Source of the DNA: Chondrocystis sp. NIES-4102
GTDB lineage: Bacteria; Cyanobacteriota; Cyanobacteriia; Cyanobacteriales; Xenococcaceae
Direction of reading: 5' to 3'
NCBI GenBank assembly: GCA_002368355.1
Contig: AP018281.1
Span: 1,488,001-1,552,000 of the forward strand
Length of the DNA: 64,000 nucleotides
Shown here in pieces: positions 1,014 to 11,405 of this stretch. Position numbers and translations under genes: made by a program. A model generated the notes under the pieces. The model was not told the origin of the DNA. It was given only the letters and a program-made list of their open reading frames with translations, and ran no database searches. Within the stretch, counting starts at the first letter, position 1, and the number at the start of each line of letters is the position of its first letter.

Positions 1014-2549
1014 TTAAGTTGGCTCACTAGATTTCATTTGCTGATACTGCTTATCCTTAGCTGCCCTATACTTTTCAATGGTTTCCTTTGCCCCGATCGC
1101 CTGTTGATATTCTTCTGTATTTTCTTGCTCTAGACGATCCCTAACTTTGCTTCTCAAATCTGCAACTATTTTACCATTGAGCTTACGTGTTTGCTTAAGA
1201 TCTAAAATAGGTTTGGGATAGGAAGTAGCTGCATATTGTTCGGATAATATCTCTTTCATACTGTAACCTTTAAGCTCAGGTATCCAGTGATAAACAAATT
1301 GTAAATAAGGATCATGTTCTTGCAAATTCTTAGTAGGATTGTAGATTCTAAAGGTTTTAGACATAGGATTAGTTACCCCTGCTTGAGCTTGCCATTGCCA
1401 ATGATTAATAGCAATATCCCCATCTACTAAGCGACTCATAAAATATTCTGCGCCATGATGCCAAGATACACCACAGTTGATACATAAAAATGTGACACAC
1501 ATCGCCCTCATGCGGAAATTCATCCAACCCATAGAATTTAACTGACGCATGGAGGCATCAACCATAGGAAAACCAGTTTTTCCCACACACCAAGCTTGAA
1601 ATAATGCTAATTTTTCCCCCTCTAATTTATCCCAACAGTACCATTGATCAAATTCCCAGTAGCGGTTTTTATATGCCAATTCAGGATGAAAATAGTGTCT
1701 TTGATTAAATTTGTCATGCCAACGTAAACGATCTAAAAATGTCTTAAGGGAAAATCGATCTTTAGATGATGCTGGTAATTGTGTTAATGTTTTTGTTGTC
1801 TCTTGATAAACGGTGCGAGCGGAAATAGTACCAAAATCTAAATGGGGTGAGAGGTGAGAGGTAGCCCCCATCATCGCCATCCAGGGGCGAGACATCTTCC
1901 AGTGGTAGCCTTGGTATCGATTATGAAGAAAACTATTGAGGGTATTTTTTGCTTGATTTTCACCACCAGGGAATTTATTATATGTTTCCTGATCTGGATA
2001 ATATTTTTCCCAAAGTTCTTTTAAAGTTAATTGGGGTAGATTAAAGTTAAGCGATGAAGTATTAATAGACTCAGGTGCTGAATGCAAAGGTAGATTTTGA
2101 TAGTTGTGATAATCTCGCCACAGGTTTTCATAACATTCCTGGTGTTGGAGGAAATGATTTAAACCAATATAGGTTTCTAAATTATGCTGTTGATAAAATT
2201 CTTTAATATGGCGATCGCGATTTATGCCGTATTCTACCTGTACGTCTCGGTTAAAATATAATTTAGGTCTTTTACCTTCTGCCAGTAGCGATCGCGTTAA
2301 GGACTCTAGTATATCTATAGAATTACCTTCAAATAAGTATAATTTACTACCTAGTTTTTTCAGATTAGCATCCAAGTTTTCTAAAGATTCAAATAAAAAT
2401 TTAACCCTAACTGCTGCTATTTCTGGTTGCTGGTAAAACCAAGGATCGATAATAAAGCAAGGTAATACTTCTTTCCCCTCAACAGTTGCTTCTTTAACTA
2501 TCTCATTATCCTCAAGACGTAAATCACGACGAAACCAAATTATCTGCAT
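1014..2549 (-). CDS. Photolyase/cryptochrome family flavoprotein
   Basis: A 511-residue protein of the DNA photolyase/cryptochrome family, which uses FAD and blue light either to repair UV dimers or for signalling. The N-terminal Rossmann-like antenna domain starts with IIWFRRDLRLEDN. The C-terminal FAD-binding helical domain contains GKTGFPMVDASMRQL, GWMNFRMRAM and HWQWQAQAGVT. The motif order and length are as in photolyases, but the last core motif differs from the usual class I form (asparagine-rich ...NNxxxWQWVAG) because it reads DGDIAINHWQWQAQAG, so this is a divergent, cyanobacteria-type branch. Whether it repairs CPDs or is a light sensor cannot be decided from sequence. The ATG at 2549 fits the family N-terminus exactly. 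Confidence 0.85.
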   Translation of the reverse strand: MQIIWFRRDLRLEDNEIVKEATVEGKEVLPCFIIDPWFYQQPEIAAVRVKFLFESLENLDANLKKLGSKLYLFEGNSIDILESLTRSLLAEGKRPKLYFNRDVQVEYGINRDRHIKEFYQQHNLETYIGLNHFLQHQECYENLWRDYHNYQNLPLHSAPESINTSSLNFNLPQLTLKELWEKYYPDQETYNKFPGGENQAKNTLNSFLHNRYQGYHWKMSRPWMAMMGATSHLSPHLDFGTISARTVYQETTKTLTQLPASSKDRFSLKTFLDRLRWHDKFNQRHYFHPELAYKNRYWEFDQWYCWDKLEGEKLALFQAWCVGKTGFPMVDASMRQLNSMGWMNFRMRAMCVTFLCINCGVSWHHGAEYFMSRLVDGDIAINHWQWQAQAGVTNPMSKTFRIYNPTKNLQEHDPYLQFVYHWIPELKGYSMKEILSEQYAATSYPKPILDLKQTRKLNGKIVADLRSKVRDRLEQENTEEYQQAIGAKETIEKYRAAKDKQYQQMKSSEPT

Positions 2550-2661
2550 CTAAACTTATTGCTTGATTTAGAACAAAAATACTCTATCTAAATTAACAAT
2601 AGCTCAGATACTATAACAATAGTTATTAATTCTCTCAAAAGCTACCTAAGCTAAATTGTTT

Positions 2662-3111
2662 TTAAATCCAACGTCGAACCGTGTCACAATATTGTTGATA
2701 CTCTGATTTAAATCTCGCTTCTAGCATTCGTTCTTCTTCCTTAATAAACATTTCTTGAATTAACCAAATAAAGATAGGAATTATTACTATAGGGGTTAAA
2801 CTGCCTAAAAATATCCATAACCCACTTAAAATAATCACCATCCCTAAATAAATAGGATTTCTACTATAGTTAAATATTTTTTCTCTAACTAAATAACTAG
2901 ATTCTTGAAAAGGCTTGATAGTTGTATTTTTTTGTCGAAATAAATAGGCACAAAATAAAATTATTATTATTCCTATTAACATTGCCACTATCCCTAAATA
3001 AATAAAGGGTGGAACTAATAGTTGTTTAATAGGTAACCATTTATCTAGTCCAATCATCAATATAGCTGATATCAAAAACCACACAGGAGGTAAAACTTTC
3101 TGTAGATTCAT
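2662..3111 (-). CDS. Isoprenylcysteine carboxyl methyltransferase-like membrane methyltransferase
   Basis: A 149-residue integral membrane protein with about four hydrophobic segments. The C-terminal half carries the ICMT/PEMT family signature: SRNPIYLGM followed by a long hydrophobic segment, then EEERMLEARF..YQQYCDTVRRWI. Such enzymes use S-adenosylmethionine to methylate lipids or lipid-linked substrates at the membrane; the substrate here is unknown. It lies alone between the photolyase-like gene and the divergent SRAP gene. The length is normal for the bacterial single-domain family. Confidence 0.8.
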   Translation of the reverse strand: MNLQKVLPPVWFLISAILMIGLDKWLPIKQLLVPPFIYLGIVAMLIGIIIILFCAYLFRQKNTTIKPFQESSYLVREKIFNYSRNPIYLGMVIILSGLWIFLGSLTPIVIIPIFIWLIQEMFIKEEERMLEARFKSEYQQYCDTVRRWI

Positions 3112-3318
3112 ATTCTTTAACCTCTTAATCTACTCTCTCAATTGTTAATTATGCTGTCGTCAGCTTCAAATTTCTATTAAATTTTTCAAGCTGGTTTATA
3201 TAGATAGTTATATGGCAATTGGTGTTATGTAATATAAAACCAATCCATAAATTATTCTTCTTGCTCAACAGTATATCTATACTAAAGATAACTGCTCTTA
3301 TTCACCTCTCTAACAATT

Positions 3319-3969
3319 ATGTGCGGAAGATTTACTCTTGATACAACCGAATCAGATTTAGCCCAACAATTTGCAGTAGAAGTTAATCAGTCTCTGCCTG
3401 CGCGATATAATATTGCACCTAGTCAAACAATATTGGTAGTAAAATCAGATGAAGATAATCAACGTTCCCTAAACTTGATGAAATGGGGTTTAATTCCTAG
3501 TTGGGTGAAAAATCTGGCTAATTGGAAAAGCAATCTGATAAACGCTCGTGCTGAGACAATTACAGAAAAACCAAGCTTTAGAGGTGCATTTAAACGTAGA
3601 CCTTGTTTAATTCCAGCTTCGGGATACTATGAATGGAATCAAGCCAAACAACCTTATTATTTTCAACCGCCAGATAATACATTGTTTGCTTTAGCAGGAC
3701 TTTGGGAATCTTGGAGTGATGAGGAAGAGGAGCTTACTACTTGTACAATTATTACCACCGAGGCAAATACTCAAGTAGCCGAAGTTCATCATCGAATGCC
3801 AGTGATTATTCGCCCTCAAGATTATGATTTGTGGTTAGGTGAGGTGGAAGGTAGGAAACAGTTGCTCAATTCTTTACCAGAAGTAAATTTAAACTTATAT
3901 CCAGTTAGTAAGCAGGTAAATAGCCCTAAAAATGATACGGCTGAATGTATTATTCCTATTGCCTGTTAG
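3319..3969 (+). CDS. yedK: SRAP (YedK/HMCES-type) abasic-site DNA-protein crosslinking protein
   Basis: A 216-residue SOS response-associated peptidase family protein. In this family Cys2 forms a thiazolidine crosslink with abasic sites in single-stranded DNA and shields them. The key residues are visible: Cys2 (MCGRF), Asn75 (NARAET), Glu105 (ASGYYEW) and His158 (HHRMPVI). Length and motif order are standard. It stands alone with its own upstream region, and no LexA-like box was obvious upstream. Confidence 0.93.
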   Translation: MCGRFTLDTTESDLAQQFAVEVNQSLPARYNIAPSQTILVVKSDEDNQRSLNLMKWGLIPSWVKNLANWKSNLINARAETITEKPSFRGAFKRRPCLIPASGYYEWNQAKQPYYFQPPDNTLFALAGLWESWSDEEEELTTCTIITTEANTQVAEVHHRMPVIIRPQDYDLWLGEVEGRKQLLNSLPEVNLNLYPVSKQVNSPKNDTAECIIPIAC

Positions 3970-4055
3970 AGAAAACTGCATAAAAAAAATAGACCAGTCG
4001 TAATTAGAGAATGTAAGCAAAACACACAATAAATATTATTCTTACGAGGTCTAAA

Positions 4056-4406
4056 ATGAAAAAATCTACATTAGCTATTCTAACTACAGTTATCACTTTC
4101 CTTCCTCTAACTGCTTTTGCTCAACAAGCTCAAACCAATGTTCAAACCAATAATAACTCTGCTGCTGCGGTTGGCACTGGTAACTTTATCCGCCAAAATA
4201 CCAATCAAACCAGTATCCAAAATCAATTAGACTTGGGTGCTTATGGAGTACCTGCAACTCCTAATGTTCAAACTTCAGTCCAAGGTAATGCAAATTCTGC
4301 TGCTGCTATTGGTCACAATAACTACCTCAATCAAAATGCTAATCAACAAAGTGTTCAAGGTCAGGTGGATATAAAACAGTATCTACCCAATGGCTACGGA
4401 CATTAA
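4056..4406 (+). CDS. Small secreted curlin-like repeat protein
   Basis: A 116-residue protein with a clear Sec signal peptide (MKKSTLAILTTVITFLPLTAFA, cleaved about residue 22). The mature part consists almost only of Gln, Asn, Ser, Ala, Gly and Thr. It holds two imperfect repeats of about 45 residues: NVQTNNNSAAAVGTGN...QNQLDLG, then NVQTSVQGNANSAAAIGHNN...QGQVDI. The spacing of Gln/Asn with small residues recalls curlin repeats (CsgA/CsgB), which form extracellular amyloid; this link is an inference. An AGG ribosome site (ACGAGGTC) lies 9 bases before the ATG. No csg-type secretion genes are nearby. Confidence 0.65.
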   Translation: MKKSTLAILTTVITFLPLTAFAQQAQTNVQTNNNSAAAVGTGNFIRQNTNQTSIQNQLDLGAYGVPATPNVQTSVQGNANSAAAIGHNNYLNQNANQQSVQGQVDIKQYLPNGYGH

Positions 4407-4421
4407 AATGTAAAAAAGAAT

Positions 4422-4525
4422 TGGGCGTTGATGATATTAATAGGTGAATTTTTTAACATAGTCATCTGTTATGAAAAAAGCTAATAACTTTGATTGTACC
4501 TAATACTTGAAATCACTAACGCCCA
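4422..4525. repeat. Structured inverted-repeat element of about 104 bp
   Basis: TGGGCGTT (4422-4429) is mirrored by AACGCCCA (4518-4525), and four more inner bases also pair (TGAT with ATCA). It fills the gap between two convergent genes, the curlin-like gene and the nidogen/DUF5648 gene. It could be a bidirectional terminator, a small non-autonomous element or a small RNA. No clear target duplication is seen at its ends. Confidence 0.35.
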
Positions 4526-4607
4526 TCACTCTTATAGGCGCACCCAATCTAAAACATTAATTTTGATACACCAAGTGATAGTAATCTAATAAAATCTTAC
4601 TATCCTT

Positions 4608-5813
4608 TTATAGTTCAAAAACATAAAAAGCTATACCATTATTACCTTCAACAGAGAAATGCGGTAATTGATTACGGATATAATTAATTTCATTTTGATC
4701 TACAGTAAATAAGTGCGCTCCTGATTGACCATTCAACATTCTATATACTGGAATAGTCTGCATATCTGCTGGTTTTTCTTGAAAAGCGTAATATTTAATA
4801 CCTTCAAAATTATAATTATCTAGATTATCCTCAATATGTTTTTTTTCAACTTCATCCATTGTGTATAAGTGCGATCCTGTTTGACTATTGAAAAAACGAT
4901 ACACAGGTTTAATTCCTGGCATTTCTTCCCCAGTTAAAAGATCTTTATTATCAGTTAAAACAGAATATTTTTCGGCTTCATAACTATAATTTAGTTGTCC
5001 TGTGTTACTTTGGTCTAAAATCGTTTGAATTTCGTTAGTATCAGTTGTATAAAGATGAAATCCTTTATTATATTGATAAAAACGGTGAATATTCGAGACA
5101 GGTAAGCCATTAATAGTTCTTCCCGTCTGCGGAATGCCATTAATAACAGAAAAAATATACCTACCTGCTTGGTTTACATTACTAGATTTCTCTAAATCCC
5201 AAAGCTGTTGTATATTACCAGAGGCGGGGATTTCCTTAAAGTTTATACCATCTGCTGCTGAATACCCGATACGAGCATATTCATTCTCTGATGCTTCTCC
5301 AACTGTCCATTGAATATCTTCATAACGAAACTCTATTTGAAAGTTTTCTCTTCCCAAGTCTTTTAAAATAAGTTGAAAAGCATTAGGAATTTGCCCTTCA
5401 GGGAAAGCCCCTACATCATCCCAAGTAATGGTAACAGTATTGCTTGCAGGGTCTAAATCCCAGTAAACTAAATTAGAACCAGTAGAATTGCCTCCTGTTG
5501 AAGTGGAAAGTCGTTCTACAGAGGTGTCAACATCAGCAAAAAAGGGCGCGATAATTGGTATTCCAGTGTCGCCTGTAAGAGCAAACGGAGTATATTCGCT
5601 CAGATAATCGTTAAAAGTAATATTGCCATTATTATTAATATAAAAACCTTGATAGGTCGTCCCAAAAAAGTTGATTCCGTTTTCAAATACTGAAGTGATA
5701 TCAATAAAATCACTGGATAGATCATCATTTCTATATAAGAAATTTTCTCCAAACCCAGCTTCGCCTCCCAGACCATTAACTAAAGGTGCAAAAGCGTTAT
5801 CTTGGTTATTCAT
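4608..5813 (-). CDS. Nidogen-like domain protein with three DUF5648 repeats
   Basis: A 401-residue protein. The N-terminal half is a nidogen-like (NIDO) domain: FFGTTYQGFYINNNGN, IIAPFFADVDT, YWDLDPASNTVTITWDDVG, and FQIEFRYEDIQW. The C-terminal half has three DUF5648 repeats, each with a VYRF/HRFYQ start and a core such as HLYTTDTNE, HLYTMDEVE and HLFTVDQNE. Both modules are typical of extracellular or surface proteins, yet the N-terminus (MNNQDNAFAPLVN) has no Sec signal peptide, so export by a type I system (C-terminal signal) is possible. This is an inference; no Ca-binding RTX repeats are visible. Confidence 0.75.
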   Translation of the reverse strand: MNNQDNAFAPLVNGLGGEAGFGENFLYRNDDLSSDFIDITSVFENGINFFGTTYQGFYINNNGNITFNDYLSEYTPFALTGDTGIPIIAPFFADVDTSVERLSTSTGGNSTGSNLVYWDLDPASNTVTITWDDVGAFPEGQIPNAFQLILKDLGRENFQIEFRYEDIQWTVGEASENEYARIGYSAADGINFKEIPASGNIQQLWDLEKSSNVNQAGRYIFSVINGIPQTGRTINGLPVSNIHRFYQYNKGFHLYTTDTNEIQTILDQSNTGQLNYSYEAEKYSVLTDNKDLLTGEEMPGIKPVYRFFNSQTGSHLYTMDEVEKKHIEDNLDNYNFEGIKYYAFQEKPADMQTIPVYRMLNGQSGAHLFTVDQNEINYIRNQLPHFSVEGNNGIAFYVFEL

Positions 5814-6134
5814 ATTATTTGTGATTCAAGTGTATATTTTTAATGTTTCCCAAAAATCTATAAAATAATTAATTTAAAGCCCACTTAGTAATAGTTATTT
5901 TCCTATATTCGTTTTCTTTACTTGAATTTGATTAGCTAAAAAGGTGTAAACTTTAATTTTTAATTGTTTGGCAAGACTAAAAAACTATATCTACTAATTA
6001 TTAATAATGTTTAAAGAGGGAATTCTGAATTAGAGTGAATAACTAATTGACTAGAGAGTAGAGCATAAGCTATTACTGACACAAACTGATTCTCTCAAGT
6101 CTACTAGAAGCGTCAATAATAATTGAAAACTAAT

Positions 6135-7571
6135 ATGAGCAAGTTTAAACAACAATTTAAGCCAAAACCCCGTACTTATAATTCCAAACGTCAAGAATTA
6201 GAAGTAGAGCCGATGCTACTGTTTATTTTAGCAGCAGCTATATTTGTAATAACTTATGCTGTGATTGGGTTATTGCCACCGTTAAGACAATCTTACATTG
6301 GTGTCTTACTCTTTGAGAGGGGTTTTATTCAAGCTATAACTATTTCTTTTGCTGCTGTGGTGGTGGCATTTACGATTTTAAAATTCTTATTACTGCGACG
6401 GGAATATACTGCTTTAAACAAAATATGGATTGCTGATCATATACCTCTAGATCAACCTCAATCTCATGAAGTTGATTATTTTCAGCAAAGATTAATCAAG
6501 GATGGCAATTTAGTTGCAGTTCGTTGTGGACGAGTAATTAAAGCTTATATCAAAAGTGGCGATCGCACGACGGCTAATGAATTTGCTCTCGATGATTCTG
6601 CTTTTTATGTTACTGGTTCTGAAGCATCCTATTCTATACCTAAGATTTTCGGTTGGGCAATTCCTTTACTTGGTTTTATCGGTACAGTTGTTGGTATTAG
6701 TGGTGCTGTTAGTGGTTTCACTAGCTTTATGCAGAATTCGACAGATGTAGAACAAATTAAAGAAGGTGTCGGACAAGTTACTAGTAATCTTGCAGTTGCC
6801 TTTGATACTACATTATTGTCCTTGTTTCTTAGTGTTTTAGTAATGATTCCTTTGGTATTAATAGAACGTTATGAAACTAAATTACTCTTGGGTATTGATA
6901 TGTTTATTAACGATAAACTTTTACCTCGCCTGAAAAAGAGCGATCAAGAGTTAGATTCTAATAGTATCAATCACTCAGTAGAAGCAGCAATCAAAGAGTA
7001 TTTTCCTAACCCTCAAGATTTAGTTGCACCTGCCCAAAGCTATGCAGAACAAGCTGCAAGGACTTTATCAACAGGGTTTATCGCCGAGGTAAGTAAGGTA
7101 CAGGATGTAAGTTCTCAGATCATTAATCAAGTTGCGGAAATTCGACAACAAGCCCAGGGCGATCGCCAGCAATTTCTAGATTTTTTTGCTCGTCAACAAC
7201 AGATCAATCATGAATTAGTGCAGCAAATTACAACAATTGTTGATGAAATTAGAAATAAAAATTTAGCAGTAGCTCAAAATCTTAATACTCAAACTCAAGG
7301 TATTAGTAATCAATTGGAAAAGGCTGCAAAAATTATAGAAAACAGAGTGGCTTCTTTAGAATCTACTACTCAAAAATTAACTGATTTTCATCTCTCACAG
7401 TCTGGCTTAGAACATTCTTTTGCCCAGGGCGAAAAAACTGCTCAACTTGAAGAAGTATTAAAAGGAGTTAAGGATAATTTATCTCAGCTTCAGCCCCTAC
7501 TTAAACAACTCAACAAACCCCGTCGTATCACTTTAGTTGAACAAGATAACGGTAGACTCGAATTTGAATAG
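6135..7571 (+). CDS. MotA/TolQ/ExbB-type proton channel with long coiled-coil tail
   Basis: This is the pentamer-forming channel subunit of an ion-driven motor. From the ATG at 6135 it is 478 residues; a TTG four codons upstream is the only longer alternative. Four hydrophobic segments lie near residues 27-47, 62-87, 168-195 and 220-243. The last two carry the family core, GFIGTVVGISGAVSGF and AFDTTLLSLFLSV, with the polar Thr residues that line the ion path. Residues from about 285 to 470 form a Gln-rich coiled coil (QDVSSQIINQVAEIRQQ and similar), far longer than in ExbB/TolQ and reminiscent of the ZorA tail. The next two genes encode ExbD-like partners, with gaps of 78 and 27 bp, so this is an operon. 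The function is unknown. Confidence 0.82.
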   Translation: MSKFKQQFKPKPRTYNSKRQELEVEPMLLFILAAAIFVITYAVIGLLPPLRQSYIGVLLFERGFIQAITISFAAVVVAFTILKFLLLRREYTALNKIWIADHIPLDQPQSHEVDYFQQRLIKDGNLVAVRCGRVIKAYIKSGDRTTANEFALDDSAFYVTGSEASYSIPKIFGWAIPLLGFIGTVVGISGAVSGFTSFMQNSTDVEQIKEGVGQVTSNLAVAFDTTLLSLFLSVLVMIPLVLIERYETKLLLGIDMFINDKLLPRLKKSDQELDSNSINHSVEAAIKEYFPNPQDLVAPAQSYAEQAARTLSTGFIAEVSKVQDVSSQIINQVAEIRQQAQGDRQQFLDFFARQQQINHELVQQITTIVDEIRNKNLAVAQNLNTQTQGISNQLEKAAKIIENRVASLESTTQKLTDFHLSQSGLEHSFAQGEKTAQLEEVLKGVKDNLSQLQPLLKQLNKPRRITLVEQDNGRLEFE

Positions 7572-7649
7572 CAATATCTCTAAAATTGTAGTGCATGAGA
7601 TATATATCTTACATTTCCCTGTTTTTCACACTAAGCTCATAAAAGCCAT

Positions 7650-8120
7650 ATGTCTAGGCGTAAAATTCATCGCAAACAAGCAACAGAAATAGAACTTTTT
7701 CCTTTTCTTTCCGTTATTGCTTGTACCATTGGCACACTTATATTGTTAATCATCATTTTAACTACTCAAGCCTTAGAACCTCAAGAAGCCGTCATAGTTG
7801 CTAAGACAGAGGGAGATAAAAAAGCAGCCAATAACACCAAAAATAAAACACCTATTTACATTGAATGTCGTCAGGATGGCTTTATACTTCATCCGAGTAA
7901 GCAATTTGCACCTAGGGCAGATATCTATGATGAAAAATCTCCCTTAAGACAATTGATTGCTAACTTGAAAACTAATAAAGAAAAGCAATATCTAATTGTA
8001 ATTCTACGTCCAGATGGGTTAGAAATGTTTGATAAAATTCGGGCATTAGTACAGCAGCAGGGAATTGACATTGGCTACGAACCATTAGAGTTTGGCTTAG
8101 AACTAAAAATAGAAAGTTAA
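7650..8120 (+). CDS. ExbD/MotB-like single-span partner, lacks the transmembrane Asp
   Basis: A 156-residue protein: a basic N-terminus (MSRRKIHRKQ), one transmembrane segment at about 17-39 (ELFPFLSVIACTIGTLI) and a periplasmic domain of about 110 residues. In ExbD/TolR/MotB the start of this helix has a proton-accepting Asp; here that place is Ser21. The next gene product aligns with it without a gap (F19, L20, then Ser/Asp21, T26, G28), which shows the two are paralogues. The C-terminal block YLIVILRPDGLEMF...GYEPLEFGL also matches its neighbour. It is probably the proton-inactive half of a heterodimer; this is an inference. Confidence 0.7.
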   Translation: MSRRKIHRKQATEIELFPFLSVIACTIGTLILLIIILTTQALEPQEAVIVAKTEGDKKAANNTKNKTPIYIECRQDGFILHPSKQFAPRADIYDEKSPLRQLIANLKTNKEKQYLIVILRPDGLEMFDKIRALVQQQGIDIGYEPLEFGLELKIES

Positions 8121-8147
8121 AGATTAACTATAAACTTAAAATTATCT

Positions 8148-8864
8148 ATGGCACGTAGACTTAGACGCAGAACTCAACCTGTTAGTGGCAATTTAGATTC
8201 CTTTTTAGATACCTTAACTAATACTGTTGGGGCATTAATTTTTATTACTTTATTTGTGACTCTGATAGCTACAGGTAGTCGCCCTAAAACTAAAATCACA
8301 ATTCAAACTCCTTTATTTTCTACTAGTAAAAAAGAAGCACTGTGGTTTGAAATTAAAAACAATAAAATTAGTCATCTAAATTTGCGTCAAGTAAGGGAAA
8401 AAGAGTTGGAATTTACAAGCAATTTACCTAACTGTAATAAACCAGATCCTACTTCCTTAGACTATATTACTAGCCAAAATAATTATCAATCTTGTTTGTT
8501 GAGTATTTTAGGTCGCCAAAGTAATTTTAGGGTTGATACTAAAAATTATGAAGTTAAAACCGTAGACGACGGCGTATCACTATTATTTGAACCTGTATCA
8601 GCTAATATTGGTGAAACTACTCAGCAAATTACTACAGCCGATTCTGAATTTTCCAGAGTTCTATCCCAGTTTGATCCCAGTAAAGATTATATTCTATTTA
8701 TTGTAAGACCAGATAGTTTTGAAGCTTTTCGTTCAGCCAGAAAACAAGCTTGGAATGCTGGATATGAAGTAGGGTGGGAACCTCACCCTGATAGTTTACC
8801 AATTAAAATTAGAACTATACTTGGGTCTGAACTTCCTGGGGGTACATCAGTTGGTGTACAGTGA
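8148..8864 (+). CDS. ExbD/MotB-like single-span partner, Asp retained
   Basis: A 238-residue paralogue of the preceding protein. A very basic N-terminus (MARRLRRRTQ) precedes one transmembrane helix, NLDSFLDTLTNTVGALIF, with Asp17 and Asp21; Asp21 sits where ExbD/MotB carry the essential proton-binding Asp. The periplasmic part ends in YILFIVRPDSFEAF...GYEVGWEPHPDSL, homologous to the end of the upstream protein, with an extra segment of about 80 residues (about 80-165) in between. There is no OmpA-like peptidoglycan-binding domain, unlike MotB or ZorB. It lies 27 bp after the upstream gene, in the same operon. Confidence 0.72.
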   Translation: MARRLRRRTQPVSGNLDSFLDTLTNTVGALIFITLFVTLIATGSRPKTKITIQTPLFSTSKKEALWFEIKNNKISHLNLRQVREKELEFTSNLPNCNKPDPTSLDYITSQNNYQSCLLSILGRQSNFRVDTKNYEVKTVDDGVSLLFEPVSANIGETTQQITTADSEFSRVLSQFDPSKDYILFIVRPDSFEAFRSARKQAWNAGYEVGWEPHPDSLPIKIRTILGSELPGGTSVGVQ

Positions 8865-9027
8865 TGCTGGGAAATTTTAGCGATTTTTTGATATTTATTT
8901 TTGTTAACTAATATTTTTCCCTCACTACATCTGAAGATAGATCATTAATTAATCTATAGCAAGAAAGATGTACGGGCAGTTTATTATTAAGTATTGTAGA
9001 AAATAATTGAAATAGCAAGAAAACTAA

Positions 9028-9210
9028 ATGAATCTTTTACTAGAAGTTGCCACTAACGAACCCCATTTTCCTTATGCTGCGGTTGGTACTTTGGTGGTTG
9101 GTTTTATAGCTGCCGTTAGCATAGGTTCGATCGCCTGGTACAACTCTAAACGTCCTCCTGGTTGGGAAGATAAAGAACGTCCTGATGTTGTTCCCAAAGT
9201 GGAAAAATAG
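9028..9210 (+). CDS. Small single-span membrane protein, probable Psb35-like
   Basis: A 60-residue protein with one transmembrane helix (YAAVGTLVVGFIAAVSIGSIAWY) and a polar tail SKRPPGWEDKERPDVVPK. The tail and size resemble the cyanobacterial Psb35 (Ssl2148) family, a small protein bound to the CP47 assembly module of photosystem II; I base this on memory of the family and it needs a search. The gene sits between the motor operon and an acidic unknown protein. Confidence 0.5.
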   Translation: MNLLLEVATNEPHFPYAAVGTLVVGFIAAVSIGSIAWYNSKRPPGWEDKERPDVVPKVEK

Positions 9211-9270
9211 GTAAATTAGCTAATTTTGATTTCTTAATAACAAATAAAGTAAAAATTGGAAACTAAAGGC

Positions 9271-9609
9271 ATGGAAAATAACACTCCCGATGATGCAAAT
9301 TACGATCCTAATGTAAGCGATAAGGATGCAGGTTATGATGCTAATATAACCTCTGCTGAAACAGCAGCTAGAATAGAAAGGGAAGGGGAGAATTTTGGAA
9401 AAACCCCTGTAGCTGAAGGAGAGCTTGATACAACCGCAGGTTATACTGTAGACCGCGAAGGATTAGGCAATAACTATGCGATCGAGCCTGAAATGTATTA
9501 CGAAGAACCAGGCGATCGCAGAGAAGTTGAAGCAGCAGAAAAAGCTGAACGCGCTCAAGAGTTAGAAGAAATTAATTCTCCAGGTGGTAAAGGTCCTGGT
9601 GTAATTTAA
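9271..9609 (+). CDS. Acidic, probably disordered conserved protein
   Basis: A 112-residue hydrophilic protein (from ATG 9271; a TTG start 15 bases earlier is possible). It is rich in Glu, Asp, Asn and Gly with no hydrophobic core, no Cys and no signal peptide, so it is likely soluble and largely unstructured. It contains several short similar patches (DDANYDPN, DAGYDANI, TTAGYTVD, GNNYAIEP). It follows the Psb35-like gene by 60 bp and ends at a good terminator, so the two may share a transcript. No function is recognised. Confidence 0.6.
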   Translation: MENNTPDDANYDPNVSDKDAGYDANITSAETAARIEREGENFGKTPVAEGELDTTAGYTVDREGLGNNYAIEPEMYYEEPGDRREVEAAEKAERAQELEEINSPGGKGPGVI

Positions 9610-9642
9610 TTAATAAGAAAATATATTAAATATTAAATTTTG

Positions 9643-9679
9643 GACGCTAACATTTAAATTAGATTAGCGTCTATTTTTT
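9643..9679 (+). terminator. Rho-independent terminator
   Basis: A perfect 8-bp stem, GACGCTAA (9643-9650) with TTAGCGTC (9664-9671), is followed at once by TATTTTTT. It ends the 9.0-9.6 kb transcript and also separates it from the convergent deaminase gene. Confidence 0.8.
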
Positions 9680-9694
9680 GATTATTTATATCCT

Positions 9695-10147
9695 TTAAAG
9701 TTTTTTAAATAATTCTAAACATTCTTCTGCCAAAATACCGCCGATAACTTCTATCTTTTGAAATCCCTTTTCGACAACACTTTTACAAGTTAAATCTATT
9801 TGTTCGGTATTAAGTTCAATTAATTGTTGTGTAGACGCTCCATAAACTATACGGGAAACACCAGCCCAAACGCAAGCTGCTGCACACATAGGACAAGGTT
9901 CACAAGTGGTATATAAAGTATAGCCAGCTAAAGCATCTAGGGAATAACCGTATTTTTTGGTAAAGGCACGTAAAGCGTTTATTTCTCCATGCGCCGATAA
10001 ATCGTTATCTGTTTGCGCCGTGTTATATCCACGGATCACAATTTCATCATCTTTAACTATTACAGCACCATAGGGTAAATCTCCTTTTTTGGCTTCTTTT
10101 AATGCCTCTTGCATAAATTGATCGTGATTCATTTTCTTGGTGTTCAT
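9695..10147 (-). CDS. Nucleoside/guanine deaminase (cytidine deaminase-like zinc enzyme)
   Basis: A zinc-dependent deaminase of the CDA superfamily, 150 residues from the ATG at 10147 (an ATG 39 bases upstream gives a less likely extension). The zinc site is clear: AHGEINAL supplies His and the catalytic Glu, and TTCEPCPMCA supplies two Cys. The HGE form with CEPCPMC and the length fit guanine deaminases and related nucleoside deaminases better than tRNA adenosine deaminase TadA, though the substrate is not certain. It is transcribed divergently from the TetR gene, with 175 bp between the starts. Confidence 0.82.
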   Translation of the reverse strand: MNTKKMNHDQFMQEALKEAKKGDLPYGAVIVKDDEIVIRGYNTAQTDNDLSAHGEINALRAFTKKYGYSLDALAGYTLYTTCEPCPMCAAACVWAGVSRIVYGASTQQLIELNTEQIDLTCKSVVEKGFQKIEVIGGILAEECLELFKKL

Positions 10148-10298
10148 ACTAATTGAAATAGAACAAGGATTAATCTCTTTTATCAAATATAAATCGTCTC
10201 AAGAAATCGCCAATTACTCTAGTATTAATTTAAAAAATCCCCATAATAGTATCTACAAGAATTTGCTAACTAAAACTTTTTCAAGTATATTATTAAAC

Positions 10299-10312
10299 AG
10301 ACCGAACGGTCT
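10299..10312. promoter_or_regulatory. TetR-type operator upstream of the repressor gene
   Basis: AGACCGAACGGTCT is a palindrome with half-sites AGACCG/CGGTCT around a 2-bp centre, a classic TetR/AcrR-type operator. It ends 10 bases before the repressor start codon and is repeated in near-identical form at 10962-10975. It supports autoregulation and the downstream start at 10323. Confidence 0.7.
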
Positions 10313-10322
10313 TAAAGAATTA

Positions 10323-10919
10323 ATGTCTAAAGCCGAACAAACTAAAGCGTATATCATTGAGCAAGCAGCAGAGTTATTTAACCTCAAAGGTTATGCAGCT
10401 TCATCTATTGCCGATATTATGCAAGCAACTGGTTTAAAGAAAGGGGGAATTTATAATCATTTTAAAAGTAAAGACGAACTAGCGTTAGCAGCGTTAGATT
10501 ATGCAGTTAGCCTTTTAAGTCAAAGAATATGGAGTGTAGTAAAAACTAAACGTAATGCCATCGATCGCTTACAAGCACTGGTAGCTAGCTATTTAATTTA
10601 TATTGATGATCCACCAATTGTAGGGGGATGTCCAATTTTAAATGCAGCCATTGAAACCGATGACACAAATTCTCCTTTGCGCGATCGCGCTTTACAGGCT
10701 ATGAATTCCAGTCGTAGTTTAATTGTACGAATTATTAAAACAGGTATAAAAAAAGGCGAAATAAGATCTACTGTTGAACCTGATACTGTGGCAACGGTTA
10801 TTTTCTCTGCTATAGAAGGAGCAATTATGATGAGTAAATTAGAACGAAATCCTATTCATTTAAAAAGGGTTGTAGCTCATCTACAGACATATATTCAAGA
10901 TTTAGCGTTAAATAAATAG
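10323..10919 (+). CDS. TetR/AcrR family transcriptional repressor
   Basis: A 198-residue regulator from the ATG at 10323. The N-terminal HTH reads SSIADIMQATGLKKGGIYNHFKSKDEL, and the C-terminal part is the helical ligand-binding and dimer domain. A much longer in-frame start exists at 10137, but that stretch contains the palindromic operator and is not TetR-like, so 10323 is chosen. The same palindrome lies before the thioesterase gene downstream, so this protein probably represses itself and the thioesterase-GST pair. The ligand is unknown; the neighbours (thioesterase, glutathione transferase) hint at an organic or electrophilic compound. Confidence 0.88.
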   Translation: MSKAEQTKAYIIEQAAELFNLKGYAASSIADIMQATGLKKGGIYNHFKSKDELALAALDYAVSLLSQRIWSVVKTKRNAIDRLQALVASYLIYIDDPPIVGGCPILNAAIETDDTNSPLRDRALQAMNSSRSLIVRIIKTGIKKGEIRSTVEPDTVATVIFSAIEGAIMMSKLERNPIHLKRVVAHLQTYIQDLALNK

Positions 10920-10961
10920 AAGAAAAGGAAGTAAGAAGGTTAATTTTTTTTGCAGTCAAAA

Positions 10962-10975
10962 AGACCGATCGGTTT
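10962..10975. promoter_or_regulatory. Second TetR-type operator, before the thioesterase gene
   Basis: AGACCGATCGGTTT matches the operator at 10299-10312 at 11 of 14 positions, with the first half-site identical. It lies 20 bases before the start codon of the thioesterase gene. Two copies of one palindrome flanking the repressor gene make a small regulon likely. Confidence 0.62.
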
Positions 10976-10994
10976 GTAAATATTAAGATTTCCT

Positions 10995-11405
10995 ATGAAT
11001 AAAAAACCTTTTGAGGTAGAAATAGAAGTAGCAATCAAGACCTATGACATAGATTTTGCAGGAATTGTCAGCAATATTGTCTATATTCGTTGGTTAGAAG
11101 ATTTAAGACTCAAAATGTTGGAGTTGTATTGCCCTTTAGAAGAATTAATAGCAAAGGGATATTGTCCAATTGTTAATTCAACGGCAATCAAATATCAAAA
11201 AGCTTTACGTTTAGGTAATCACGCTGTGGGTAGGATGTGGATGTCTCAACTGGGACGTTTACGCTGTACCCTAGAAGCGGAGATATATTTAGGGCAAGAA
11301 ATAGCTGCTACCGCGACACAAGTGGGGTTTTTTATTGATTTAGAAACCATGCGCCCAAGGGCTATACCTGAAGAATTTAAACATATTTACAATCGACACA
11401 ATTAA
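10995..11405 (+). CDS. Acyl-CoA thioesterase (4HBT/YbgC-like hotdog fold)
   Basis: A 136-residue hotdog-fold thioesterase. The catalytic-loop signature IDFAGIVSNIVYIRWLED is the YbgC/4-hydroxybenzoyl-CoA thioesterase pattern, with Asp at the active position. These enzymes hydrolyse acyl-CoA or aryl-CoA thioesters; the substrate is not known here. It follows the TetR gene by 75 bp with an operator in between and precedes a glutathione transferase by 31 bp, so the two enzymes are likely co-transcribed under the TetR protein. Confidence 0.82.
   Translation: MNKKPFEVEIEVAIKTYDIDFAGIVSNIVYIRWLEDLRLKMLELYCPLEELIAKGYCPIVNSTAIKYQKALRLGNHAVGRMWMSQLGRLRCTLEAEIYLGQEIAATATQVGFFIDLETMRPRAIPEEFKHIYNRHN

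What the first reader, a model, noticed from the sequence alone, without database searches (positions are those of the whole stretch)
6135..8864. Possible new ion-driven motor: one MotA/ExbB-like channel with a long coiled-coil tail plus two unequal ExbD-like partners
The A subunit has the ExbB/TolQ core and a cytoplasmic coiled coil of about 190 residues, as in Zorya ZorA. It is followed by two single-span proteins that are paralogues: their helices align position for position (FLSVIACTIG and FLDTLTNTVG), but the proton-carrying Asp21 is Ser in the first. ExbD, TolR and MotB act as dimers of one subunit, so an active/inactive heterodimer would be an unusual, asymmetric stator. Neither partner has the OmpA-like cell-wall domain of ZorB or MotB; their C-terminal domains share an RPD...GYE/WEP pattern of unknown fold. 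No TonB, Tol or flagellar gene is adjacent.
Basis: partly seen in the sequence, partly recalled or inferred. Interest (0 to 1): 0.82.

Follow-up and report, generated by a model that had tools for sequence, protein, structure and literature searches.

The report
Cyanobacterial ion motor, two unequal axle proteins
Some cyanobacteria carry a three-protein membrane motor, related to the Tol and Ton motors, whose two axle proteins are unequal because usually only one keeps the acidic residue that should carry protons; if confirmed, it would let biologists test whether such motors need two proton sites or only one.

Summary
Window 6135-8864 encodes A (478 aa, TolQ/ExbB-type channel with a long cytoplasmic helical tail), B1 (156 aa) and B2 (238 aa). 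B1 and B2 are paralogues at profile level. B1 has Ser and B2 has Asp at the ExbD proton-site position.

The trio is patchy but co-inherited. In 386 cyanobacterial genomes, A and B1 occur in the same 22, and B2 in those 22 plus one with only a fragment. In 9 of the 22 at least one gene lies far from the others, yet all three are kept. Ser is found in 68 of 73 readable distinct B1 proteins (4 Asp, 1 Asn); Asp in 72 of 73 B2.

Best reading: a proton-driven motor with a hetero-dimeric, usually one-Asp axle. Stoichiometry, proton flow, rotation and the work done are untested. Some copies sit beside type III-B CRISPR or CBASS genes; the window's does not.

The parts
6135..7571 (+). Gene A: TolQ/ExbB-type channel subunit, 478 aa, with long cytoplasmic tail
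   Evidence: Pfam MotA_ExbB 24.8 bits over cut-off 22.9; model core matches TolQ Z 14.2, ExbB Z 13.2; found in 22 of 386 cyanobacterial genomes
6684..6686 (+). A Thr184, aligned with the conserved Thr of the LLGT motif in ExbB
   Evidence: alignment with the genome's own three ExbB proteins; invariant in the 16-row alignment
6804..6806 (+). A Asp224 in the AFDTT motif, beside the Thr pair of the last membrane helix; an acid not seen there in the own ExbBs or in ZorA I
   Evidence: present in 72 of 72 distinct A proteins of 300 aa or more (71 by pattern, L106 by eye); compared (the ExbB register in this helix was set by eye)
7011..7361 (+). A residues 293-409: single long helix of the cytoplasmic tail
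   Evidence: predicted model, block pLDDT about 52-82
7518..7541 (+). A residues 462-469 PRRITLVE: conserved C-terminal end of the tail
   Evidence: kept in short-tail paralogues that lack about 100 residues of coil; a strict pattern hits 48 of 74 distinct A sequences (two of the 74 are fragments), most of the rest being variants such as PRxITxxD/E
7650..8120 (+). Gene B1: single-span partner, 156 aa, TolR/ExbD-fold periplasmic domain, no Asp in the helix
   Evidence: VIA-align: TolR 5by4 Z 8.7, ExbD 8p9r 7.2, 8vgd 6.9, 8vgc 6.6 over B1 residues about 48-150; 22 of 386 genomes
7692..7694 (+). B1 Glu15: acidic residue six positions before Ser21
   Evidence: E or D in 68 of 68 Ser-type distinct B1
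7710..7712 (+). B1 Ser21 at the position of the ExbD proton-binding Asp
   Evidence: Ser 68, Asp 4, Asn 1 of 73 readable distinct B1; aligned to the own ExbDs
8148..8864 (+). Gene B2: single-span partner, 238 aa, keeps the Asp; longer periplasmic domain
   Evidence: paralogue of B1, hhalign 98.8%; 23 of 386 genomes, one of them a fragment
8208..8210 (+). B2 Asp21, predicted proton site
   Evidence: Asp in 72 of 73 distinct B2 (71 by pattern, L181 by eye); lost only in G129 (L183)
8433..8435 (+). B2 Cys96, first Cys of a periplasmic pair
   Evidence: two Cys in this region in 70 of 73 distinct B2, none in 3, never one
8493..8495 (+). B2 Cys116, second Cys of the pair
   Evidence: as for Cys96; invariant in the 16-row alignment

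Best explanation
It is a separate cyanobacterial motor of the TolQR/ExbBD/MotAB superfamily. Five A subunits form the channel ring (inferred by homology). The axle is a B1-B2 pair (inferred), in which as a rule only B2 brings the mid-membrane Asp. A proton entering from the periplasm binds B2 Asp21, faces the Thr ring of A and leaves to the cytoplasm, turning the ring relative to the axle (inferred from MotAB/ExbBD). With one mid-membrane acid the 10-fold cycle of symmetric 5:2 motors would fall to five, so about five protons and 72-degree or limping steps per turn. The TolR-like periplasmic domains hold the axle to peptidoglycan or to an envelope partner (inferred). The helical tail of A, ending in a PRxxTLVE-type motif, carries motion or state to a cytoplasmic partner that is not encoded nearby (inferred). 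Shown by computation: the three genes, their homology, co-inheritance, the D/S difference, and the predicted folds of A's core and B1's domain.
For: The same 22 of 386 genomes hold A, B1 and B2, and all three are kept in 9 of 22 where at least one gene is elsewhere. All three stand together in 32 of 34 fetched loci (31 genomes) and 44 of 49 genome-contig loci (recounted in 109; the sets overlap); in both exceptions among the 34 B2 is intact elsewhere. Ser-type B1 always keeps the Pro of the ExbD helix motif (68 of 68), while B2 keeps Asp and has Ser in place of the Pro (71 of 71 pattern matches). B1's domain is TolR/ExbD-fold and A's core is TolQ/ExbB-fold. In G023 the start of B1, helix start included, has been replaced by B2 sequence: 86% DNA identity to its own B2 over 69 nt, then 42%, so the two helices are interchangeable and probably sit in equivalent places. 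The asymmetry is also kept in three short-tail paralogous operons. The fused B1-B2 model has pLDDT 81.9 and pTM 0.73.
Against: No direct evidence for hetero- over homodimers. The A+B1+B2 model has pTM only 0.46. Asp is back in 4 of 73 B1, in two lineages, so asymmetry is not strictly required. Of the 22 genomes, G129 has lost the polar motif in both partners and G218's copy is broken (A only residues 328-471, B1 with a stop). One locus, L089, has no A in the 1.6 kb before B1. B1 keeps an acid at position 15 and A has an invariant Asp224, so the proton path may differ from the one proposed. No common neighbour tells what work is done.
Confidence: 0.55

Rival explanations
1. Two homodimeric motors share one ring protein: A5-B2(2) is the working motor and A5-B1(2) a closed or regulatory form, so the cell sets output by the B1:B2 ratio.
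For: B1 alone lacks the Asp; B1 and B2 genes can separate on the chromosome, as separately regulated subunits could; whether AglQ and AglS form homo- or heterodimers is stated to be unknown (PMC9389320, passages).
Against: A, B1 and B2 occur in the same 22 of 386 genomes; in most loci seen B1 and B2 are adjacent, 27 bp apart in the window; gene conversion of the B1 helix by B2 would abolish a purely Asp-less form.
Confidence: 0.2
2. It is a Zorya-like anti-phage motor: the envelope-sensing axle and cytoplasmic tail trigger a defence effector.
For: Long tail as in ZorA; weak ZorA matches (NCBIfam 25.7 bits, PADLOC 21.5). At four Nostocales sites the trio follows type III-B CRISPR genes and CARF-HEPN proteins: draft contigs L095 (= L200), L100 and L104 (replicon unknown; families scanned on L200 and L095, the others by BLAST cluster) and Anabaena cylindrica plasmid pANACY.03. 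On a Microcystis plasmid it follows a CBASS-type cyclase, a 2TM effector and a PLD-Snf2 helicase.
Against: ZorA cut-off not reached; no OmpA-like domain found in B1 or B2, and B1's is TolR-like. Of ten window neighbours none matches a defence model except a cytidine-deaminase-type gene at weak score. Nostocales loci L090 and L101 show no CRISPR genes beside the trio. In Thermosynechococcus-type genomes B1 follows a gatC-like gene (named by me from its sequence) and B2 precedes a histidine-biosynthesis gene. No match to B2 in 50,697 phage records and only two in 72,556 plasmid records.
Confidence: 0.15
3. B1 is not an axle but a TonB/TolA-like third subunit that lies outside the ring; the motor is an ordinary A5-B2(2).
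For: Ton and Tol motors have a third single-span protein (established knowledge), and B1 lacks the Asp.
Against: B1 keeps the Pro-containing helix motif of ExbD, is the partner closest to Pfam ExbD, has the TolR/ExbD domain, and has taken helix sequence from B2 once clearly and once probably.
Confidence: 0.1

Closest known systems
TolQ-TolR and ExbB-ExbD
   Same: Ring subunit fold (Z 14.2 and 13.2), periplasmic domain fold of B1 (Z 8.7 TolR, 7.2 ExbD), helix motif position, Thr in the pore.
   Different: Two different partners, Asp in only one as a rule; extra N-terminal helix and long C-terminal tail in A; Asp224 beside the Thr pair; no TolA/TonB family in ten window neighbours. The genome has three separate canonical ExbB-ExbD pairs.
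AglR-AglQ-AglS of Myxococcus gliding
   Same: One ExbB/TolQ-type gene and two ExbD/TolR-type genes side by side (PMC3169522, passages).
   Different: AglQ and AglS are both said to have the conserved aspartate (PMC9389320, passage), and both are listed as Pfam ExbD with E 6.7e-18 and 3.1e-15 (PMC3169522). Glt gliding genes were not searched for here.
TPH-vWA heterologous pairs with TolQ-like motors
   Same: Hetero pair predicted as the dimeric partner in a TolQ-like ring (PMC12204202, passages).
   Different: vWA domains instead of TolR-like ones, and one Asp per monomer.
Zorya ZorA-ZorB
   Same: Tail made of the A C-termini; 5:2 ion motor (PMC11890865, passages).
   Different: ZorB has a peptidoglycan-binding Pal-like domain and is one protein (PMC11890865, passages); no Zorya partner model matched ten window neighbours.

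Membership tests
MotA/TolQ/ExbB (A) | Pfam PF01618 over its cut-off | tested here: met
   24.8 bits against 22.9; the short-tail paralogue L057 reaches only 17.6, L056 33.1
MotA/TolQ/ExbB (A) | TolQ/ExbB fold of the core | tested here: met
   8odt TolQ Z 14.2, 4.6 A, 210 residues; 5sv1 ExbB Z 13.2, 4.4 A, 205 residues; a designed helical bundle reaches 9.4
MotA/TolQ/ExbB (A) | pentamer around an axle, ion flow | not testable with these tools
   no multimer prediction or assay
ExbD/TolR (B1) | Pfam PF02472 over its cut-off | tested here: not met
   19.4 bits against 25.4; 18.7 in the genome search; L054 and L057 B1 give no row, L045 13.9
ExbD/TolR (B1) | proton-binding Asp in the helix | tested here: not met
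   Ser21 here; Asp in 4 of 73 readable distinct B1
ExbD/TolR (B1) | TolR/ExbD periplasmic domain | tested here: met
   top rows TolR Z 8.7 and ExbD Z 7.2-6.6; an unrelated chain reaches 6.6, so the weight is on TolR and on four related entries leading the list
ExbD/TolR (B2) | Pfam PF02472 | tested here: not met
   no Pfam family up to E 10
ExbD/TolR (B2) | proton-binding Asp in the helix | tested here: met
   72 of 73 distinct B2
ExbD/TolR (B2) | TolR/ExbD periplasmic domain | tested here: inconclusive
   profile homology to B1 through the C-terminal domain; no TolR/ExbD row over B2 residues in the fold search of the fused model
Zorya | ZorA model over its cut-off | tested here: not met
   NF033915 25.7 bits, cut-off 100
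Zorya | OmpA-like peptidoglycan-binding domain in the B subunit | tested here: not met
   no such Pfam match in B1 or B2 up to E 10; B1's domain is TolR/ExbD-like
Zorya | ZorC/ZorD or ZorE beside ZorAB | tested here: not met
   ten window genes within 1014-11405 scanned with PADLOC; no Zorya model
AglRQS-type | TolQ-like gene plus two TolR-like genes | tested here: met
   A, B1, B2 together in 32 of 34 and 44 of 49 loci
AglRQS-type | Asp in both partners | tested here: not met
Ton/Tol system | TonB or TolA partner beside the motor | tested here: not met
   no TonB/TolA family in ten window genes within 1014-11405; not scanned in all relatives. PMC12204202 (passage) notes that tonB is often away from its motor

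The most novel reading that the evidence does not exclude
A natural rotary motor with an unequal axle: B2 carries the only mid-membrane proton site and B1 carries an acid six residues nearer the cytoplasm (E/D15), so protons pass two staggered sites and the motor makes five steps per turn instead of ten, with a built-in front and back.
Probability: 0.3. Interest if true: 0.85.

Novelty: new variant of a known kind. Interest (0 to 1): 0.62.

Why it matters
The 5:2 motors (MotAB, ExbBD, TolQR, ZorAB) are explained by a symmetric axle with two proton sites used in turn, ten ions and 36-degree steps per revolution (PMC9389320, passages). An axle whose two halves are different genes lets each site be mutated alone, and here nature has kept one site silent over most of the family while restoring it in two lineages. 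That makes 'does a rotary stator need one or two proton sites?' directly testable. It would also add a further motor to cyanobacteria, where little is known even of TonB function (PMC8597729, passage).

Tried and rejected
1. Single-sequence and profile searches against PDB sequences: only chance rows (TAL-effector repeat artefacts with 0 passing stretches for B1; syntaxins and designed coiled coils for A's tail). Core-only A gave one weak row, ZorA I (E 3.4).

2. Whole-model Foldseek gave no row at E <= 0.001 for either model (best rows TolR at 0.034 and ExbB at 0.0027). The fold statements rest on VIA-align, whose own note says that Z under 8, or under about 13 for helical bundles, may be a common arrangement; TolR (8.7) and TolQ (14.2) are above these, the ExbD rows for B1 and the ZorA and MotA rows for A are not. 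B2 residues of the fused model matched no TolR/ExbD row; this is not evidence of another fold.

3. A common functional neighbour was sought. None is general. A LapA-domain small protein lies just downstream of B2, directly or one gene further, in 18 of 34 loci (Pfam for one member) and moved with B2 in both G008 and G009; its cluster was seen only in the window's family, and the window's own downstream 60-aa ORF has no Pfam match. M16-like pairs (named from sequence), histidine kinases and CRISPR genes are lineage-specific.

4. A role in the Ton system: the genome's three ExbB-ExbD pairs are elsewhere; no TonB family in ten window neighbours.

5. Non-cyanobacterial origin: two of 49 genome contigs rows are labelled Gracilibacteria and Chloroflexaceae (L103, L113). 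L103 is sister to Hydrococcus with short branches, and L113's contig has the same length (14,846 bases) as that of G036, which genome search places in the window's order; both look mis-binned.

6. Synechocystis sll0477-sll0479 as a possible orthologous cluster: from memory only, not tested; the one paper found (PMC3925133, one passage) lists an antisense RNA of sll0477 in a table and no function.

7. Literature: no description of this trio was seen in searches (CC-licensed PMC only; listings), nor in 'find' passages of PMC8597729, PMC12905483, PMC12505986, PMC12204202; PMC5349195 held none of the terms.
Full report
WHAT IS THERE. The window lies in a 5.0-Mb cyanobacterial genome (G000:C1:1488001-1552000) whose nearest named relatives by B1 are Pleurocapsa, Waterburya and Hyellaceae. 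Three genes on the + strand follow each other: A 6135-7571 (478 aa), B1 7650-8120 (156 aa), B2 8148-8864 (238 aa), with gaps of 78 and 27 bp. A passes the Pfam MotA_ExbB cut-off; B1 is a sub-threshold ExbD; B2 has no Pfam match. The genome has three canonical ExbB-ExbD pairs elsewhere, so this is an additional motor.

ARE B1 AND B2 RELATED? Yes. Profile-profile comparison of 16-row alignments gives probability 98.8 and E 5.5e-17 over 146 columns, helix and C-terminal domain included. Against the genome's own ExbDs the helices line up as ILPMID (ExbD), LFPFLS (B1) and LDSFLD (B2). B1 keeps the Pro and has lost the Asp; B2 has lost the Pro and kept the Asp. This complementary loss is what one expects of duplicates that specialised for two places in one axle, but it does not prove it.

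CONSERVATION OF THE TRIO. Of 60 genomes searched with A (the window's own included), 33 matched, one of them (G001) only weakly through the coil; 27 had none. I fetched 34 loci from 31 of the matching genomes: A and B1 are adjacent in 34 and B2 follows in 32. The two exceptions, G008 and G009, keep a full B2 elsewhere at 69% identity. A scan of the contigs of 84,980 species with B1 patterns gave 117 stretches, of which 49 were confirmed; 44 of 49 have A, B1 and B2 together. The others are L074 and L077 (the same two genomes, B2 moved), L089 (no A in the 1.6 kb before B1), L119 (contig end cuts B1) and L116 (Thermosynechococcus, B1 alone). Many of these are the same organisms as in the 34. Apart from two rows that look mis-binned (L103, L113) every row is labelled cyanobacterial.

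PHYLOGENETIC PROFILE. In the same 386 cyanobacterial genomes, drawn evenly from the phylum, B1 was found in 22, A in 22 at E <= 1e-10 and B2 in 23. The 22 are the same; the extra one, G102, holds a B2 remnant in a 48-aa frame. One of the 22, G218, has a broken copy. The genomes are related (14 genera of 142), so a chance figure for identical sets (about 10^-36) overstates the case. More telling, in 9 of the 22 at least one gene lies far away and yet all three are kept: G157, G165, G190 and G231 (B2 apart), G138, G223, G288 and G321 (all three apart), G129 (B2 on another contig).

THE D/S POSITION. From 114 loci (34, 49 and 31, overlapping in organisms), 75 distinct B1 and 73 distinct B2 sequences were taken, a few of them partial. 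B1: 73 have a readable motif; Ser 68, Asp 4, Asn 1. The other two are a truncated reading frame (L194) and a motif-less B1 (L182). B2: Asp in 71 by pattern and in L181 by eye, absent in L183. All 68 Ser-type B1 have Pro18 and an acidic residue at position 15 (59 Glu, 9 Asp). The Ser codons are all TCN (93 rows, duplicates included). The asymmetry is also present in the paralogous operons with short-tail A in G007, G016 and G018, and in the most divergent trio, G225 (B1 Asn, B2 Asp).

WHERE THE ASYMMETRY IS LOST. The four Asp-type B1 lie in two places of the B1 C-terminal tree (72 rows, 119 columns, many forks weak), inside the window's family: L045+L046+L047 (support 94/81), and L050 beside the Ser-type L048 (100/97). 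In L050 the first 69 nt compared, up to FLDILT, are 86% identical to its own B2, and the next 45 nt 42% (four Ser-type B1 of the family: 32-45% and 40-49%); this looks like a gene-conversion tract. L045-L047 have a more B2-like helix (18, 16 and 16 of 25 to the B2 consensus against 11, 10 and 10 to the B1 consensus; DNA 59-62% and 58-67%), older and less sure. So a B2-type helix works in B1's place, which suggests that both helices sit in equivalent surroundings, and a two-Asp axle is tolerated. L050's A has lost its tail motif, so that lineage may be decaying.

STRUCTURE. A single-chain read-through of B1+B2 (404 residues, 46 rows) gave mean pLDDT 81.9 and pTM 0.73. VIA-align ranks TolR 5by4 (Z 8.7, 3.9 A, 85 residues) and ExbD 8p9r, 8vgd, 8vgc (Z 7.2, 6.9, 6.6) first, over B1's domain; an unrelated chain reaches 6.6. 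Foldseek's best row is also TolR, at E 0.034. The A+B1+B2 read-through (909 residues, 39 rows) gave pLDDT 75.9 and pTM 0.46; its A core matches TolQ 8odt (Z 14.2), ExbB 5sv1 (13.2), ZorA I 8vvn (10.8) and MotA (9.9), with a designed helical bundle at 9.4. A has one more helix before the TolQ-like core (26-46) and a long helix at 293-409. These single-copy chains say nothing reliable about the assembly.

OTHER FEATURES. A Asp224 (AFDTT), beside a Thr pair that I align by eye with the ST of ExbB's last helix, occurs in 72 of 72 distinct A proteins of 300 aa or more; own ExbBs and ZorA I lack it. B2 has two Cys in its periplasmic insertion in 70 of 73 and none in three, all Thermosynechococcus-type, never one alone. 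This suggests a disulfide and a periplasmic location. The end of A's tail is kept even when about 100 residues of coil are missing.

SURROUNDINGS. Ten window neighbours within 1014-11405 were scanned: photolyase, a methyltransferase-type membrane protein, SRAP, NIDO/DUF5648, a deaminase, a TetR regulator, a thioesterase and three small or family-less ORFs; no defence system, TonB or TolA. In the window's family a LapA-domain protein often lies just after B2 (18 of 34 loci). In Crocosphaera-type and Hydrococcus-type loci a histidine kinase precedes A (cluster; two members scanned). In Thermosynechococcus-type genomes B1 follows a gatC-like gene (named from sequence) and B2 precedes a histidine-biosynthesis gene. 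In Spirulina an MltA protein and a peptidoglycan-binding/HEAT protein precede A. At four Nostocales sites the trio ends a type III-B CRISPR run with CARF-HEPN proteins (L095 = L200, L100, L104, L222); Nostocales loci L090 and L101 show none. On a Microcystis plasmid it follows a CBASS-type cyclase, a 2TM effector and a PLD-Snf2 helicase. These defence sites are two of many settings. They may be recruitment, and the window's copy shows no sign of it.

HOW IT PROBABLY WORKS. By homology with TolQR/ExbBD/MotAB, A makes the ring and B1/B2 the axle; the PMF drives rotation; the TolR-like domains reach the wall or a partner; the tail reports to the cytoplasm. The new element is the axle: one mid-membrane acid as a rule. 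PMC9389320 (passages) derives ten ions and 36-degree steps per turn from two equivalent sites and discusses five 72-degree or limping steps when the symmetry is broken from outside; here it would be broken from within. Steps shown: genes, homology, co-inheritance, residues, predicted folds. Steps inferred: pentamer, hetero-pair, proton path, rotation, partners.

KNOWN OR NEW. The parts belong to a known superfamily. Paired partners are known for AglQ/AglS, both with Asp and of unknown pairing (PMC9389320, passages), and for TPH-vWA proteins, both with Asp (PMC12204202, passages). I saw no report of a trio with one Asp-less partner in searches; subscription journals are largely outside that library. 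Verdict: new variant of a known kind; interest 0.62.

Noticed in passing
L222 (Anabaena cylindrica plasmid pANACY.03, trio at 7117-9696); L095, L100, L104, L200: The trio ends a type III-B CRISPR run (cas10/Cmr genes, CARF-HEPN proteins) at four Nostocales sites; a viperin gene lies about 4 kb further on the plasmid.
   Followed up: partly
L223 (Microcystis NIES-2481 plasmid p1, 1-10480): N6-methylase, CBASS-type cyclase, 2TM/SLATT effector, PLD-Snf2 helicase, then A, B1, B2 and DUF559 on one strand: a possible defence cluster that includes the motor.
   Followed up: partly
L182 8406-8837, L183 6233-6961 (G129): Both B1 and B2 lack the polar helix motif while A keeps its DTT motif: a natural motor without an axle acid, or a decaying one.
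   Followed up: no
L194 6040-7684 (G218): Decaying copy: A truncated at its start, B1 with an in-frame stop.
   Followed up: no
L192 6435-6668, L193 7187-7399: When B2 moved away from A-B1, the LapA-domain gene moved with it, in both genomes.
   Followed up: partly
L099 2609-5404: In Spirulina an MltA-type protein and a peptidoglycan-binding/HEAT protein stand directly before A.
   Followed up: no
window 4056-4406: Small secreted-looking protein with N/Q-rich repeated stretches, upstream of the NIDO gene; no convincing Pfam match.
   Followed up: no
L103, L113: Contigs labelled Gracilibacteria and Chloroflexaceae carry cyanobacterial-type trios; probably mis-binned MAG contigs.
   Followed up: partly
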